Shown here one piece after another: positions 1 through 23,591 of a stretch of DNA of 25,904 bases. The notes beneath the pieces were generated by a model, which saw only the letters and a list, made by a program, of their open reading frames with translations, did no database searches and was not told the DNA's origin. The position numbers and the translations under genes are program-made. Source of the stretch: a virus; the IMG/VR virus record IMGVR_UViG_3300042371_000368, positions 1 through 25,904 of that record. The stretch is one strand, 5' to 3'. Each line of letters begins with the position of its first letter. Position 1 is the stretch's first letter.

Positions 1-17
1 GTCAGGTAACACGGCAG

Positions 18-321
18 GCGAGGCGAGGCAAGGTGCGGTAAGGCAAGGCGTGACTTGGCGTGGCAGGCCAGGCTGGGCGAGGCTTGGCGAGGCGGGGTAT
101 GGTAAGGCGGGGCATGGCAGGCGAGGCAGGCGGGGCGCGGCTTGGCGCGTCGAGGCTTGGTGAGGCAGGGCAGGCGCGGCTTGGCAAGGCACGGCGTGGC
201 ATGGCCCGGCTCGGTGCGGCTGGGCACGGCGAGGCAGGTAATGGCATGGCAGGGCAGGCGAGGCGAGGCGGGTCCCGGTGTGGCGTGGCGCGGTTCGGCA
301 TGGCGTGGCTTGGCAGGCGAG
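18..321 (+). repeat. Degenerate GGCNN pentanucleotide array, about 300 bp
   Basis: Short units of the form GGCNN (for example GGCGA, GGCAT, GGCTT, GGCAG) follow one another with occasional one-base phase slips. Because 5 is not a multiple of 3, all reading frames cycle through the same low-complexity composition. Long apparent ORFs therefore exist on both strands (60-359 plus, 2-454 minus), coding for Gly/Arg/Ala- or Pro/Ala-rich nonsense. I regard them as artefacts. GG dinucleotides spaced by 3-nt loops make the plus strand a candidate for two-tier G-quadruplexes. The array is followed directly by a perfect hairpin and a terminator, so it may be the 3' part of an upstream transcript. Function unknown. 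The first ~17 bases do not clearly belong to it. Confidence 0.85.
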
Positions 322-335
322 GAAACAAACAACGG

Positions 336-363
336 ATGATCACGAAACCAGCTTCGTGATCAT
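336..363. repeat. Perfect 11-bp inverted repeat (hairpin, 6-nt loop)
   Basis: The arms ATGATCACGAA (336-346) and TTCGTGATCAT (353-363) are exact reverse complements around the loop ACCAGC. Each arm contains TGATCA. No T-tract follows, so it is not a classical terminator by itself. It sits between the GGCNN array and a true terminator and could be a protein-binding dyad or a 3'-end stabilising hairpin. Confidence 0.85.
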
Positions 364-383
364 GAACAAACGACCACCTAAAA

Positions 384-423
384 CACAGCGCATGAAGCGG
401 CCCTTCAGGCGCTGTTTTCTTTA
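384..423 (+). terminator. Rho-independent terminator
   Basis: The stem pairs ACAGCGC (385-391) with GCGCTGT (409-415). A small internal mismatch is followed by a second pairing of GAAG (394-397) with CTTC (403-406), and a T-rich tail (TTTTCTTT) comes next. It closes whatever is transcribed from upstream, including the GGCNN array, and separates it from the next unit. The A-rich left flank (AAAACA) means it may also work on the opposite strand. Confidence 0.8.
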
Positions 424-453: not shown

Positions 454-654
454 ATGACCAGTTTCACACCGAATCTCATTTATCCGCTCTATAGAGTCAG
501 GATAAGCGGATTAATGAGATTATCCCAGAAAGAAGAACTCATAAAATTCGTTCTTATAATACTAAGACACTCTCTAAGTCTTAGATATATAAGGGTTTAT
601 TCTCATTTATCCCATAATCCACACTCTATAAGAGGGATAAACGAAAATGTCTAA
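454..654 (+). CDS. Small ORF in structured leader; possible leader peptide (66 aa)
   Basis: A strong Shine-Dalgarno sequence (TTAGGAGG, ending at 445) precedes ATG 454 with an 8-nt gap, and the ORF stop overlaps the next gene's start (ATGTCTAA, 647-654), so translation is plausible and would couple to the downstream gene. The 66-residue product is hydrophobic and basic, rich in Leu, Ile, Arg and Ser, and matches no family I recognise. It is AT-rich, unlike its neighbours, and almost all of it lies in inverted repeats. The repeated 12-mer TCTCATTTATCC falls in two different reading frames, so the repetition serves DNA or RNA and not the peptide. It could be a leader peptide controlling 647-985, or a non-coding leader with a chance ORF. 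Confidence 0.45.
   Translation: MTSFTPNLIYPLYRVRISGLMRLSQKEELIKFVLIILRHSLSLRYIRVYSHLSHNPHSIRGINENV
472..641 (+). promoter_or_regulatory. Hairpin-rich leader with repeated GGATAA/TTATCC dyads
   Basis: Four stem-loops lie in a row. The first pairs 472-488 with 505-521 (17 nt arms, 16 matching). The second pairs AAGAAC 533-538 with GTTCTT 550-555. The third pairs CTAAGAC 562-568 with GTCTTAG 578-584. The fourth pairs TTTATCCC 606-613 with GGGATAAA 634-641. TTATCC occurs at 480, 520 and 607, and GGATAA at 500 and 635, so 500-505 can pair with either of two partners. The 12-mer TCTCATTTATCC is at 474 and 601, and CTCTATA(A)GAG at 487 and 624. This suits either a switching leader RNA or multiple operators for a dyad-binding regulator. 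Confidence 0.7.
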
Positions 655-2807: not shown

Positions 2808-3706
2808 ATAGTTTTTTTAGGAGACCGCATTTGGCAAAGCCAAAACAGCGTTGGTCTTGTGGGACTATAACCGATCGTGTTCATGAACTCCGAGTGAGCT
2901 TCCCGAAATCGGGAAGCCGCTTCCGATTTCTAGCACTGACCGACCTCCATTGGGATTCAGCGCACTGCGACCGAGCCTTCTTGAAAAAGCATTTGGATTA
3001 TGCACTCGCAGAGAACGCCCCGGTAGTAATCGTGGGCGATCTCTTCGATGTGATGCAGGGTAAATACGACCCTCGGGCCGACCCAAAGACGCTGCGACCC
3101 GAGCATCGCGGCAGTAATTACTTTGATTTGATTAGCAGCACAGCACTGGAATACTTCAAGCCTTACGCCTCTATCCTATGCCTGATTACGCCAGGTAATC
3201 ATGAGGCAGCAGTTATCAAGAGAAACGAGATCGACCTGATTGATAGACTCACCCACTCACTGAGAACCCAACACAACTCTCCCGTTATCTACGGTGAAGA
3301 CTGGTGCTACCTCCTACAAAAAAACGATAGAACAACAGGTAAAGCTGATGTGCGAACCAAGCGCATCTTCCTTCATCACGGCTATGGTGGCGGCGGTGAA
3401 TCAGGCAGAGGCATCCCCCAGCATCAAGCAACCCGATCGCAATGGCAGGCTGATGTCTTCATCAGTGGGCACATCCATCGTCGCAACACCGACCACAATG
3501 TCATCACCAGCGTCAGCGGTAAAGGGAACATCGAGACTACTGATCAATGGTTCGTCAGGTGTGGCAGCTACAAGCAAGAGCTCGACTGCGGGTGGCACAT
3601 CTCAAGAGGTGCCGCAGCTCGGCCGCTTGGTGGCTGGTGGATCACGACCGAGATGACTAGGTCGAACTCGCACACCGAGTACAACACCTTCCCGGAGCAA
3701 CCATGA
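2801..3706 (+). CDS. Calcineurin-like metallophosphoesterase (301 aa)
   Basis: All metal-binding motifs of the metallophosphoesterase fold are present in order: TDLHWD (Asp48, His50), GDLFD (79-83), PGNHE (131-135), LHHGYGGGG (His192, His193) and SGHIHR (His224, His226). The enzyme binds two divalent metals and hydrolyses phosphodiesters or monoesters. In phage replication blocks such proteins are usually assumed to act on DNA ends or nucleotides, like Mre11/SbcD or lambda PP, but the substrate is not predictable here. The last ~30 residues are low in motif content. The start overlaps the end of the RusA gene (ATGTTGA), and the stop overlaps the second HNH gene (ATGA). Confidence 0.88.
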   Translation: MLNSFFRRPHLAKPKQRWSCGTITDRVHELRVSFPKSGSRFRFLALTDLHWDSAHCDRAFLKKHLDYALAENAPVVIVGDLFDVMQGKYDPRADPKTLRPEHRGSNYFDLISSTALEYFKPYASILCLITPGNHEAAVIKRNEIDLIDRLTHSLRTQHNSPVIYGEDWCYLLQKNDRTTGKADVRTKRIFLHHGYGGGGESGRGIPQHQATRSQWQADVFISGHIHRRNTDHNVITSVSGKGNIETTDQWFVRCGSYKQELDCGWHISRGAAARPLGGWWITTEMTRSNSHTEYNTFPEQP

Positions 3707-4026
3707 GATCACATAAGCCCCCACGACATGAGGTCAGGTTCCACGATGCGCCTGGGTGCCGAGCACCTAGGCTCTCGCCTTCCCGTCGTGGCTATGGTCA
3801 TCAATGGAAGCAACTCAGGAAGCTTGCCTTCGCTCGCTCTCCGCTCTGCGTCCGATGCGCGGCGCCTGCCACTGATGTCGATCACATCGTCGCTAAGAGT
3901 CACGGTGGCACCGACTCCCTCGACAACCTCCAGACCCTATGCCACAAGTGCCACGCACTCAAGACATGGCATGAAGACCGCGTCGGTGGTGGTTTCGTCA
4001 AGCTTTCTGCGAGGCCTCAAAAATGA
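3703..4026 (+). CDS. HNH endonuclease next to terminase (107 aa), second copy
   Basis: This is the HNH type found just before the terminase genes of HK97-like phages. It has RRGYGHQWKQLRK, then CVRC (Cys49, Cys52), VDHIVAKSHGGTD (His61), NLQTLCHKCH (Asn75, Cys80, Cys83, His84) and KT. In phages such as HK97 and phi12 the HNH protein works with the large terminase to cut concatemeric DNA at cos ends, so a role in packaging is likely. The first ~25 residues are basic and rich in proline. GGAGCAACC precedes ATG 3703, which overlaps the metallophosphoesterase stop. After its stop comes a 129-bp non-coding gap before the small terminase. Confidence 0.92.
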   Translation: MRSHKPPRHEVRFHDAPGCRAPRLSPSRRGYGHQWKQLRKLAFARSPLCVRCAAPATDVDHIVAKSHGGTDSLDNLQTLCHKCHALKTWHEDRVGGGFVKLSARPQK

Positions 4027-4629: not shown

Positions 4630-6203
4630 CAACCCGAGCGCCAAGGAAAAAGAAGCCGGTCACACCGAAAGATCACCCGATCGTTCGGTTCTTTGGTGAC
4701 CACTTGCGCCATACGAAGGGCGAGTGGGCTGGCACGGGTTTCGTCCTGGCTGAATGGCAGCGTCAGTTCTTGAATGAACTCTTCGGGACGGTGCGCAAAG
4801 ATGGCCTGCGCCAATACCGCACCGCCTACCTCGAGGTGCCCAGAAAGAACGGTAAGTCAACTCTCGCAGCGGGCATCGCTCTCTTCTTGCTCTGCCTTGA
4901 TCGTGAAGAGGGTGCGGAAATCTACAGCGCAGCATCCGACAAAGATCAAGCCTCGATCGTCTTTGACCAAGCCTGCCAGATGATCGAGGAGAACCCAAAC
5001 CTCTCAACAATGCTCCGCATCTATCGCAACAAAACCATCGAGCATAAAAGCTCGAACTCGTTCTACAGATCGCTATCCTCGGATGCCTTCACCAAACACG
5101 GGCTCAATGCTCATGGTGTGATCGTGGACGAGGTGCACGCTCAGCCGAATCGAGAGCTATGGGATGTGTTAACAACCAGCACCGGCGCACGAAGGCAACC
5201 GCTCACGCTCGCGTTGACTACCGCAGGGCATGATCGCCAGAGTCTATGCTGGGAGCTTCGCCAGTATGCCGAAGGGGTCAACGATAAGCTCATTCACGAC
5301 CCGACTTTCTATAGCAAAATCTACACCTCAACAGGCGATTGGAAGTCTGAATCGACTTGGAAACAAGCCAACCCGAACTATGGCGTCACGGTAAAGGAAG
5401 ACTATTTTGTCAAGGCAGTCGCAGAGGCATCAGCAAACCCCTCAAGAGAGAACGCTTTCCGCAGGCTACATCTGAACCAGTGGACATCGCAGGAGACGAG
5501 ATGGATCTCGCTCGAGCGCTGGGATGCGTGCTCCCGCGATCTCCCTGACCTTTCCGGTCGAATGTGTTTCGGTGGTCTTGATCTTTCATCAACCCTCGAC
5601 TTAACGGCGTTCGTGCTGCTCTTCCCGCCTATCGAAACGAACGAACCCTACTGGATCTTGCCGACCTTCTTCGCACCCGCAGACGCAGCGAGGGAACGAG
5701 AAAGAAACAACAAGCACCGGCTTGATGACTGGGAGCGCCAAGGTCTGATCGTGACTACGCCAGGGCGATCGCTCGACTATAGGGCAGTCGTGGCGGTCAT
5801 TGATGGACTGGCCCGAAAGTACAACATCCAAGAGATCGCAGTCGATCGCTGGAATATTAACCAGATCAGTAAGGATCTCGAAACGCTCGGCAAGAACAAC
5901 GGGCGACCCGATTGGCTTGTCGGCTTCGGGCAAGGCTTCGCAGCGATGACCGCACCCTCGAAAGAGTTAGAGGTCTTGGTGCTCTCTGAGAAGATCGCAC
6001 ACGATGGCAACCCGGTACTCAGATGGATGTTTTCAAATGTGCAAGTCGAGCGAGACAACGCAGGCAACATCAAAATGCACAAGGGAAAAGCGGTCGAGAA
6101 AATCGATGGCATCGTGGCAACAATTATGGCTTTAGGTCGGGCGCAAGTAAGCAGCTTAAACGCAACCAACATATACGACACCCAAGGAATAACACTACTA
6201 TGA
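4626..6203 (+). CDS. terL: Terminase large subunit, apparent ATA start (525 aa)
   Basis: This ATP-driven packaging motor and nuclease docks on the portal. Visible are the adaptor motif HTKGEWAG, Walker A PRKNGKST (residues 72-79), Walker B GVIVDE (164-169), the nuclease acidic residue in GGLDLSSTLDLTAF (Asp near 319), IAVDRWN, and a C-terminal KIDGIVATIMALGRA. This is the Terminase_1 (HK97-like) architecture at normal length. The frame has no ATG, GTG, TTG or CTG between ATG 4533, deep inside the small-subunit gene, and TTG 4704, inside the conserved domain. GAGGG (4614-4618) lies 7 nt before ATA 4626, which overlaps the small-subunit stop as ATAA. If ATG 4533 is used instead, 31 residues are added that are only small-subunit coding read out of frame. 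Confidence 0.93.
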   Translation: MTTRAPRKKKPVTPKDHPIVRFFGDHLRHTKGEWAGTGFVLAEWQRQFLNELFGTVRKDGLRQYRTAYLEVPRKNGKSTLAAGIALFLLCLDREEGAEIYSAASDKDQASIVFDQACQMIEENPNLSTMLRIYRNKTIEHKSSNSFYRSLSSDAFTKHGLNAHGVIVDEVHAQPNRELWDVLTTSTGARRQPLTLALTTAGHDRQSLCWELRQYAEGVNDKLIHDPTFYSKIYTSTGDWKSESTWKQANPNYGVTVKEDYFVKAVAEASANPSRENAFRRLHLNQWTSQETRWISLERWDACSRDLPDLSGRMCFGGLDLSSTLDLTAFVLLFPPIETNEPYWILPTFFAPADAARERERNNKHRLDDWERQGLIVTTPGRSLDYRAVVAVIDGLARKYNIQEIAVDRWNINQISKDLETLGKNNGRPDWLVGFGQGFAAMTAPSKELEVLVLSEKIAHDGNPVLRWMFSNVQVERDNAGNIKMHKGKAVEKIDGIVATIMALGRAQVSSLNATNIYDTQGITLL

Positions 6204-8041
6204 TTGAACGCATAAAAGGCTTTATCTCTCGGGCGCTTTCCCTTAGTGGTGGCAACCTGAAAGACCCTCGCTTGAATGAGCTCTTCGGTGGCGCATCAAC
6301 TGACTCGGGCGTCAGCGTCACACCCGATACGGCCCTCACCTACTCTGCCGTATATGCTGCGGTCAGGTGCATTGCCGAGTCGGTTTCGAGTCTACCGCTC
6401 AACTACTACGAACGCCTGCCGGGTGGTGGCAAGGCACACGCAAAAGCGAACCCGCTGCACACGCTCCTTCATGATGAACCTAATCCCGAGATGAGCTCGC
6501 TGCAATGGCGTGAGGCTTCGATGGCGCACTTGTTGCTTCATGGAAATTCTTACTCTGAAATCGTGCGTGACCTCGAGGGCAATGTGGTCGAGCTCTGGCC
6601 CATCGACCCGACTATGGTAACGCCCAGGCGCACCGACTCGGGTGAGCTTTACTACGAACTCAACCGGGGAAAGTCCTTCATCACCGCTGGCAATATGTTG
6701 CACATCCCCGGTCTGTCGTTCGATGGTATCTCGGGCATCAGCGTGATCGGCCTTGCCCGACAGTCGATCGGGTTATCGATGGCGATTGAAAGCTTCGGTG
6801 CTGGATACTTTGGCCGAGGAGCTCGGCCCGGTGGCGTGCTGACTTTCCCTGGTCAACTCTCACCCGAAGCAAGGCAGAACCTTCGCAGATCGTTTGAAGA
6901 ACTTCATGCCGGTGGTGCAAACTCTCACAGGGTCGCCCTGTTGGAAGCGGGCCTCAAATGGGAAGCCATCGGCGTGCCTCCCGATGACTCGCAGTTCTTG
7001 CAGTCGAGAGAGTTTCAAATCATCGAGATCGCCCGCTGGTTTAACCTACCACCGAACAAACTTAAGGATCTTTCCAAGACGAGCTACAACTCCCTCGAAC
7101 AGATGGAAATCAGCTTCGTCGTGGATACCCTGCGCCCGTGGCTAGTGCGTTGGGAGCAGCAGCTTAATCGCAAAATTATCAGGCCGAAAGACAAGGGGAG
7201 TTTCTTTTTCGAGTTTAATGTAGACGGGAAATTACGGGGCGAGATCGCTGCCCGTTATCAGTCGTACTCGGTCGCTCGCAACTGGGGCTGGCTGTCGGTG
7301 AACGAGATCCGAGAAAAAGAAAACATGAACCCGATCGAGGGTGGCGATGTGTATATGCAACCCATGAATATGCAATCGATCAACACCGCACCCACGGCAG
7401 CGCCTGCAACCGATCCGAGTCTGATGGCAGTGCCCACACCCGAGACCCAAGACCCGACAGCAATCGCAGCACCCGCAGCAGCAGGGGCAGATGTCGCCAG
7501 CACCGCATTGAACGGCGCACAGATCACCAGTCTTGTTGACTTGGTTACTCAGGTAGGCATGAAGCTCATCCCGATCGCATCGGCCAAGGCGATTGCAATT
7601 GCCTCGTTCCCATTCTTGTCGCAAGCGGTGGTCGATCAAATCTTCAACGGGCTTGACAGCGTGCCCGCACCCGTGGCACCCGTGGCACCCACACCCGCTC
7701 GCTCTCATGAGTCGATCATCCTACGCCTTCTTGACGATGCAGGCGAACGCCTTCAAAATGTGGAGTGTAGCGCCGTGAAGCGCTTCGCCAACAAACCAGC
7801 AGAGTTCTTAACCAAGCTTGATCACTTCTGTGCCGAGCATCGGGCCCGCGTCGTGAGTGCGTATGCACCCGTCTTGGAAGCGTTTGGCTTGACCACCGAT
7901 CTCGATGGCCATGTCCAGCGCCACCTCGACCAGTTCCGCTCGACCTGGTTGGACTTCTCAGGCAGTGTGACCGCAGCGAAACTTGCCGAAGCAGTTTCCG
8001 AAAAGATCAACACCATGAAAGGGGTCAAAGATGAAAACTAA
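6200..8041 (+). CDS. Phage portal protein, HK97 family (613 aa)
   Basis: The portal is the dodecameric ring at the capsid vertex through which DNA enters and leaves. Family marks are TYSAVYAAVRCIAESVSSLPLNYYER, HTLLHDEPNPEMSSLQWRE, HGNSYSEIVRD, VELWPIDP, HIPGLSFDGISG, QSREFQIIEIARWFNLPP and SFVVDTLRPWLVRWEQQLNRK. The canonical domain ends near residue 395. It is followed by an Ala/Pro/Thr-rich linker (about 400-435) and a ~175-residue C-terminal extension starting TALNGAQITSLVDLV, with a second proline-rich linker (VPAPVAPVAPTPA) inside it. ATG 6200 overlaps the large-terminase stop (ATGA). The extension makes the protein longer than the ~420-residue HK97 portal. Confidence 0.95.
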   Translation: MIERIKGFISRALSLSGGNLKDPRLNELFGGASTDSGVSVTPDTALTYSAVYAAVRCIAESVSSLPLNYYERLPGGGKAHAKANPLHTLLHDEPNPEMSSLQWREASMAHLLLHGNSYSEIVRDLEGNVVELWPIDPTMVTPRRTDSGELYYELNRGKSFITAGNMLHIPGLSFDGISGISVIGLARQSIGLSMAIESFGAGYFGRGARPGGVLTFPGQLSPEARQNLRRSFEELHAGGANSHRVALLEAGLKWEAIGVPPDDSQFLQSREFQIIEIARWFNLPPNKLKDLSKTSYNSLEQMEISFVVDTLRPWLVRWEQQLNRKIIRPKDKGSFFFEFNVDGKLRGEIAARYQSYSVARNWGWLSVNEIREKENMNPIEGGDVYMQPMNMQSINTAPTAAPATDPSLMAVPTPETQDPTAIAAPAAAGADVASTALNGAQITSLVDLVTQVGMKLIPIASAKAIAIASFPFLSQAVVDQIFNGLDSVPAPVAPVAPTPARSHESIILRLLDDAGERLQNVECSAVKRFANKPAEFLTKLDHFCAEHRARVVSAYAPVLEAFGLTTDLDGHVQRHLDQFRSTWLDFSGSVTAAKLAEAVSEKINTMKGVKDEN

Positions 8042-22719: not shown

Positions 22720-23591
22720 TGCCAATTTCTAGACGAATAATGGGTGTTAGCAGAGCTGTTGCAGGAGGAACAGGCATTCGAGCTATTTTCGGCTATGGCT
22801 TTACCAGCGCTGCAGTATCCTTGACAAATTTAGTTTCATCGTCCGGTGTGGTCTCTGCCGATACCGCAGGCGTTGGAAGTTCTAGATTCAATCTAGCCGC
22901 CGCAGGATACGGAACCGATAAAGCTATATTTGGCTACGGATTTACCAGCGCTGCAGTATCCTTGACAAATTTAGTTTCATCGTCCGGTGTGGTCTCTGCC
23001 GATACCGCAGGCGTTGGAAGTTCTAGGCAAACCCCTGGAGCCGCAAGATACGGAACCGACAAAGCTTTATTCGGCTACGGAATTGGTTATTCCGTGACGA
23101 ACAAAATTTCTAATACCGGCGTGGTTTCTACCGATACCACAGGCGTTGGAACCGCTAGGGGACAACTAGCAGCCGCAGCTTACGGCGGTGACAAAGCTAT
23201 ATTTGGATATGGGCAAGGCCCAACAGCCGTGACGAACAAAATTTCTAATACTGGTGTGGCTTCTGCCAATACCGCAGGCGTTGGAACCGCTAGAAATAAA
23301 CTAGCCGCCGCAGGATACGGCGGTGACAAAGCTATATTTGGCTACGGATTTAGCGCATCCATGACAAATTTAGTCTCTAATACCGGCGTGGTTTCTACCG
23401 ATACCACAGGCGTTGGAACCGCTAGGGGAGACTTAGCCGCCGCAGGATACGGAACCGATAAAGCTTTATTCGGCTACGGGTTCGGTTCAAACAAGACAAA
23501 TTTAGTCTCTAATACCGGTGTGGTCTCTACCGATGGCGCAGCCGTTGGAACCGCCAGAGGACAACTTGCGGCCGCCTCCTACGGAATATAA
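22719..23591 (+). CDS. Six-repeat propeller-like tail protein (290 aa)
   Basis: The protein consists of six repeats of 42-47 residues after a ~20-residue leader. The consensus is K-A-I/L-F-G-Y-G, a variable 4-10 residue loop, TNLVSNTGVVSTDTTGVGTAR, then LAAAGYGTD. The Kelch-like arrangement (GYG strand, R, YG strand) and the repeat count suggest a six-bladed beta-propeller. Repeat 1 begins and repeat 6 ends so that blade closure is possible. Such proteins occur as tail fibre tips in freshwater and marine phages (my recollection). The start ATG 22719 overlaps the fibre stop. An in-frame ATG at 22668 lies inside the fibre gene and is unlikely. Loops between GYG and TNL vary most, as expected for a ligand-binding face. 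Confidence 0.82.
   Translation: MPISRRIMGVSRAVAGGTGIRAIFGYGFTSAAVSLTNLVSSSGVVSADTAGVGSSRFNLAAAGYGTDKAIFGYGFTSAAVSLTNLVSSSGVVSADTAGVGSSRQTPGAARYGTDKALFGYGIGYSVTNKISNTGVVSTDTTGVGTARGQLAAAAYGGDKAIFGYGQGPTAVTNKISNTGVASANTAGVGTARNKLAAAGYGGDKAIFGYGFSASMTNLVSNTGVVSTDTTGVGTARGDLAAAGYGTDKALFGYGFGSNKTNLVSNTGVVSTDGAAVGTARGQLAAASYGI
22800..23026 (+). repeat. Near-identical duplicated repeat (86 bp identical)
   Basis: Bases 22800-22885 and 22941-23026 are identical over 86 bp, 141 bp (47 codons) apart. They code for repeats 1 and 2 of the propeller protein. Repeats 3-6 are only similar at DNA level, so this pair is a recent duplication or gene conversion. Confidence 0.9.

What the first reader, a model, noticed from the sequence alone, without database searches (positions are those of the whole stretch)
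18..321. GGCNN pentanucleotide array, possibly G-quadruplex or R-loop forming
Seen: about 60 units of GGCNN on one strand with only occasional phase slips, ending at a perfect hairpin plus terminator. Known: GG tracts separated by 3-nt loops can form two-tier G-quadruplexes, and G-rich transcripts favour R-loops. The two bases after GGC vary freely while GGC is kept, so something selects the GGC spacing and not a fixed sequence. It cannot be a normal protein gene because 5-bp units cycle all frames. Inference: a structural element, maybe an origin, a replication-fork pause or a transcript end.
Basis: partly seen in the sequence, partly recalled or inferred. Interest (0 to 1): 0.6.

Follow-up and report, generated by a model that had tools for sequence, protein, structure and literature searches.

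The report
Phage VIPR guide-RNA array
The odd GGCNN repeat is almost certainly a string of guide RNAs of a VIPR system (a recently described, CRISPR-like weapon carried by phages), and the first guide spells out a gene of close sibling phages that lack the system.

Summary
In detail: 61 GGY units lie in one 5-nt-spaced chain at window 12-320, nothing else in the window resembles it, and shuffles never come near it.

The interpretation changes. An identical, longer contig (L127) shows what the window's left end cuts off: a vipr gene, then a small accessory gene, then this array. The Vipr family matches the solved 'SUSP1 Vipr protein' (PDB 36pp) and folds like the CRISPR Csm3/Cas7 backbone. The array is therefore a VIPR vrRNA (guide) array, a kind reported in a 2026 preprint (PMC13142463).

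The 'phase slips' are 4-nt units (GGCA) that cut the array into guide cassettes of about 8-12 units. Read by the preprint's 1-nt skip rule, cassette 17-65 matches 18/18 in two sibling phages without VIPR. It has 4 mismatches in this phage's own copy of that gene. A cassette in relatives likewise hits sibling L138 16/16, against 7 mismatches in the carrier L142's own copy. Whole cassettes are gained, lost and shared between relatives.

The G-quadruplex, R-loop and origin readings are not needed. Expression and silencing were not tested here.

The parts
1..9 (+). last two codons and stop (GTC AGG TAA) of the accessory gene (vap); the full gene is L127:6568-7038, and vipr is L127:5904-6566, both off the window's left end
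   Evidence: identical overlapping contig L127, positions = window + 7029
13..322 (+). vrRNA (guide RNA) array of GGY/NN pentamers, 61 units
17..65 (+). guide cassette 1: GA GA AA GC AA AA GT TT GT, closed by GGCA; decoded target matches 18/18 in sibling phages L131 and L137
66..119 (+). guide cassette 2: CA TG GA TT GA GG AT AA GG AT; no exact 9-unit target in viral contigs
120..128 (+). short remnant unit pair GGCGA GGCA
129..172 (+). guide cassette 3: GG GC TT GC GA TT GA AG
173..236 (+). guide cassette 4: GC TT AA AC GT AT CC TC GC TG AC GA; no exact target in viral or genome contigs
237..256 (+). irregular stretch (GGTAAT unit, +1 slip)
257..315 (+). guide cassette 5: GA GA GG CC GT GT GC TC AT GT TT; two hits in viral contigs, no more than chance would give
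316..322 (+). terminal partial units GGCGAGG
336..363 (+). perfect hairpin ATGATCACGAA...TTCGTGATCAT; also present in siblings without VIPR, so not specific to the array
380..422 (+). intrinsic-terminator-like stem (ACAGCGC...GCGCTGTTTTCTTT) ending the gene group; present with and without VIPR; seen by eye, not returned by the consensus scan

Best explanation
The array is the guide-RNA (vrRNA) array of a VIPR system. In the intact locus (contig L127) the order is vipr, vap, array, hairpin, terminator, all on one strand. The array is presumably transcribed and bound by Vipr, a Csm3/Cas7-fold protein, with GGY held by the protein and each NN pair exposed. NN pairs then base-pair with dsDNA, skipping one target base after each pair, which usually falls on codon wobble positions. 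Four-base GGCA units mark the boundaries of individual guides. The window's first guide targets an early gene in closely related phages that lack VIPR, while the phage's own copy of that gene carries mismatches. The likely effect is repression of a competing sibling phage during co-infection. Shown here: locus anatomy, family membership, fold, cassette structure, target matches, self-mismatch. Inferred from the preprint's experiments on SUSP1 and P. fulva VIPRs: transcription, RNP formation, skip-rule pairing, silencing.
For: L127 is identical to the window over the 7000 bases compared and adds vipr plus vap upstream. The Vipr profile hits PDB 36pp 'SUSP1 Vipr protein' at 1.7e-40; L127 Vipr alone hits it at 3e-6. 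Both L127 Vipr and the SUSP1 gene are in phrog_4652. AF2 model pLDDT 97; top PDB matches are Csm3/Cas7-type CRISPR subunits, VIA Z 11. 76 of 106 array-bearing viral loci encode this protein, 75 of 76 copies on the G-rich strand; from the protein side, 33 of 70 vipr loci have an array nearby and none lies elsewhere in 327 kb. Among siblings, vipr and array are found together or not at all. Cassette 1 matches 18/18 in L131 and L137 with skips at wobble positions, 4 mismatches in its own allele; only 4 viral contigs match in all. A second cassette, carried by L133 and L142, matches L138 16/16 against 7 mismatches in the L142 allele. Across loci, 14 8-unit words match under skip 1 (11 after removing pattern-fetched loci) versus 1-4 in controls; skips 0, 2 and 3 stay at control level.
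Against: Four of the window's five cassettes have no convincing target here. About half the vipr loci found by protein lack an array by this detector; some are contig ends, others may use another repeat consensus. No transcript or binding data exist for this phage. The cassette lengths (7-14 units) only partly match the preprint's 9-16 units, and no distinct 3' tail per guide was identified. The preprint is not peer reviewed and its supplement could not be read here.
Confidence: 0.94

Rival explanations
1. A DNA or RNA structural element: G-quadruplex or R-loop forming array acting as an origin, fork pause or transcript end.
For: G-rich strand with GG every 5 nt, strong GC skew; located at the end of a gene group before a terminator.
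Against: Does not predict the strict pairing with vipr, the exact skip-rule matches to sibling genes, the mismatched own alleles, or whole-cassette sharing. Siblings without array and vipr keep the same neighbouring genes, so it is not essential for replication.
Confidence: 0.03
2. A recombination site for phage recombinases, for example CC dinucleotides every 5 bp as RusA cleavage sites.
For: RusA lies 22-56 bp downstream of arrays in L018 and L108 and 2 kb away in the window; many array loci lie in recombination/replication modules.
Against: RusA-like ORFs were found in only 5 array loci by the window query, against 76 of 106 for Vipr. Cassettes do recombine, but that does not explain the NN targets.
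Confidence: 0.01
3. A neutral simple-sequence expansion or an assembly artefact at the contig end.
For: Tandem units; the window contig begins at the array; L127 and L130 differ by a block flanked by a direct repeat, which assembly could collapse.
Against: Same element inside several independent contigs, with unlike NN content but constant GGY; slippage would copy NN as well. GGY is conserved across unrelated phages.
Confidence: 0.02

Closest known systems
VIPR systems (Vipr + vrRNA), PMC13142463; type system in phage SUSP1 (KT454805.2)
   Same: Vipr family protein (phrog_4652; PDB 36pp), GGY/NN pentamer RNA array next to it, one accessory gene, phage-borne, targets in rival phages under the 1-nt skip rule with skips on wobble positions.
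   Different: SUSP1 has separate ~100-nt vrRNAs with structured tails; here one continuous array is divided by 4-nt GGCA units. The accessory gene is a different family (phrog_15946, against phrog_5926 in SUSP1). Possibly the preprint's 'staggered array with overlapping vrRNAs', which could not be checked.
Class 1 CRISPR-Cas (type III Csm3/Cas7 backbone)
   Same: Vipr fold matches Csm3/Cas7 over about 150 residues; array of exchangeable guide units.
   Different: No CRISPR-type repeats and spacers; guide information is split into dinucleotides. No cas genes were noticed beside it, but none were searched for specifically.

Membership tests
VIPR | Vipr protein (RAMP family) encoded at the locus | tested here: met
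   L127:5904-6566, identical phage; phrog_4652 4.5e-28 shared with SUSP1 Vipr; PDB 36pp hit
VIPR | RRM/RAMP fold related to CRISPR Cas7 | tested here: met
   Model of family member L017, pLDDT 97; Csm3/Cas7 hits, Z 11
VIPR | vrRNA of alternating GGY and hypervariable NN | tested here: met
   Unit statistics over 348 units and sibling comparison
VIPR | 9-16 repeats per vrRNA followed by a 3' tail | tested here: inconclusive
   Cassettes of 7-14 units; no separate tail per cassette seen; the hairpin after the array is shared by siblings without VIPR
VIPR | targets read with a 1-nt skip | tested here: met
   18/18 and 16/16 matches; skip 1 stands above controls, skips 0, 2 and 3 do not
VIPR | accessory vap gene involved in DNA interaction | tested here: inconclusive
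   A small gene, phrog_15946, lies between vipr and array in L127, and its family was found in 25 array loci; fold search gives only weak winged-helix-like hits, E above 0.1
VIPR | transcribed array bound by Vipr and silencing of a target | not testable with these tools
   needs RNA-seq, pull-down and reporter assays
CRISPR-Cas | CRISPR repeats with unique spacers and cas1/cas2 | not tested
   The array has no CRISPR-type repeat; no dedicated search for CRISPR repeats or cas genes was run

The most novel reading that the evidence does not exclude
The GGCA-delimited cassettes form a memory array that is actively updated: an unknown process copies a rival phage's coding sequence into the GGC scaffold, dropping every third base, and carriers replace their own target alleles to become immune.
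Probability: 0.12. Interest if true: 0.9.

Novelty: new member of a known kind. Interest (0 to 1): 0.6.

Why it matters
It turns an unexplained repeat into a readable record of which phages compete with this one. The sibling set gives a compact natural experiment: carriers with mismatched alleles, non-carriers with perfect target sites, and arrays that differ by whole guides. That makes two open questions testable: how VIPR guides are acquired, and how carriers avoid self-targeting.

Tried and rejected
RusA cleavage-site idea: dropped once Vipr proved the common neighbour. Protein coding: 5-nt units cycle frames, and ORFs through the array are mechanical. Rfam: no match in 1-2500. Targets of cassettes 2 and 4: no exact match in viral contigs; cassettes 4 and 5: none in genome contigs. 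Cassette 5 hits in L167 and L168 and cassette 1 hits in L170 and L171 are judged to be about what chance gives. Matches L054 to L026, L050 to L044 and L084 to L051 are GC-rich and were not counted as targets. The masked skip-3 comparison was void because arrays matched themselves. The flank identity used wrong offsets and was redone. The PADLOC scan failed on a bad coordinate and was not repeated. Host not determined.

Full report
What is there. The window starts nine bases before the end of one gene and then runs into 61 GGY units spaced mostly by 5 nt (12-320). The chain score is 50.3 against at most 6.2 in 500 shuffles, and the best chain in the rest of the window is 3.3. The array is followed by a perfect hairpin (336-363) and a terminator-like stem (about 380-422).

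It is not unique. In 106 of the loci with enough units, one protein family was present in 76, with 75 of 76 copies on the G-rich strand, usually ending just before the array or one gene upstream. Seven members tested all fall in phrog_4652, function unknown, with no Pfam family above cut-off.

Identification. A literature search found a 2026 preprint describing VIPR: a phage-encoded RAMP protein, Vipr, with vrRNAs of alternating GGY/NN that read DNA through NN pairs with one base skipped between pairs (PMC13142463). Three checks tie our family to it. The SUSP1 gene at 28474-29061 matches our profile at 6e-44 and phrog_4652 at 8e-96, and GGYNN runs are visible in the intergenic stretches beside it. 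The PDB entry 36pp, 'SUSP1 Vipr protein', matches our profile at 1.7e-40. The AlphaFold model of a family member (L017, pLDDT 97) matches Csm3/Cas7-type CRISPR subunits, Z 11 over about 155 residues.

The window's own locus. Contig L127 is identical to the window over the 7000 bases compared and continues upstream: vipr (5904-6566), a 156-aa accessory gene (6568-7038, phrog_15946) and then the array. Profile search puts L127 Vipr in the family (3e-47). Among close relatives, L130, L133, L134, L142 and L197 have vipr and array; the others held show neither, though several of those contigs do not reach the locus. In L131 another gene occupies the place between the same two neighbours, and the hairpin and terminator remain. 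So the hairpin and terminator are not specific to VIPR.

Cassettes. The slips are 4-nt units, mostly GGCA: of single-N units in the sibling arrays 60 are A, 6 G, 3 T. They cut the arrays into blocks mostly of length 5n+4: the window has 49, 54, 44, 64 and 59 nt blocks plus short remnants. Flanks are about 90-100% identical among the four nearest relatives while cassette content differs. L130 has all five window cassettes plus six more in the middle; one cassette is shared by L133 and L142 at different positions, another by L130 and L134.

Targets. Decoding NN with one skipped base, cassette 17-65 matches 18/18 in L131 and L137, in frame, with skips at wobble positions; L131 and L137 differ from each other only at skipped bases within the site. 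L135 and L136 have 2 mismatches. The carriers L127, L130, L134 and L142 have 4. In all viral contigs only four records match exactly, two being these siblings. In L127 the gene lies directly upstream of vipr. The cassette shared by L133 and L142 matches 16/16 in the Prim-Pol/AAA gene of L138, while its carrier L142 has 7 mismatches there, as do L134 and L127, which do not carry it; L197, a VIPR phage without this cassette, has 2. L133's contig does not hold that gene. In the three matches examined closely (window, L133, L208) the match runs exactly from one slip to the next, apart from one extra matching pair in L131, which supports reading slips as guide boundaries. An array in L208 matches a site in the vipr gene of L121 and L203-L207, and one in L093 matches a site within the vipr coordinates of L056, in line with the preprint's statement that some vrRNAs target other VIPRs.

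Controls. Across all loci held, 8-unit words matched perfectly 14 times under skip 1 (11 after excluding loci fetched with a skip-1 pattern), against 1-4 in five unit-shuffled controls; skips 0, 2 and 3 gave 4, 1 and 2, at control level. Overlapping words are not independent, so this is support, not a precise test.

Limits. Four of five window cassettes have no convincing target. About half of the vipr loci found by protein have no array by this detector. Nothing here shows transcription, binding or silencing; these are inferred from the preprint's experiments on other VIPRs. The preprint's supplement was not readable, so the VIPR type and the match to its 'staggered arrays' are open. Real cassette loss between L130 and L127, or assembly collapse at the direct repeat flanking the block, cannot be told apart here.

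Noticed in passing
window 454-654: 66-codon ORF after the terminator whose sequence forms long imperfect hairpins; a 3-sequence alignment with L131 and L197 gave 55 pairs, 21 with two-sided changes, no Rfam match. A 7-sequence realignment gave a weaker structure. Repeated TTATCC/GGATAA motifs in the window appear replaced in concert by GTTCC/GGAAC motifs in L131 and L197.
   Followed up: partly
L208 7062-7102 and the array of L093: Guide cassettes of other phages match sites inside vipr genes of further phages (L121, L203-L207; L056), apparent VIPR against VIPR.
   Followed up: partly
L035 2144-2429; L014 2635-4273: Arrays in other loci are split by near-identical hairpin-like spacers; possibly the ribozyme-interspersed layout of the preprint, not tested.
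   Followed up: no
L131 about 3190-3880: A different gene (start MNYALTPIETVYKGYKFRSRLEARW, read by eye) sits where carriers have vipr-vap-array, a possible alternative module at the same site.
   Followed up: no
window 22781-23554: 132-135 nt tandem repeats in a coding region.
   Followed up: no
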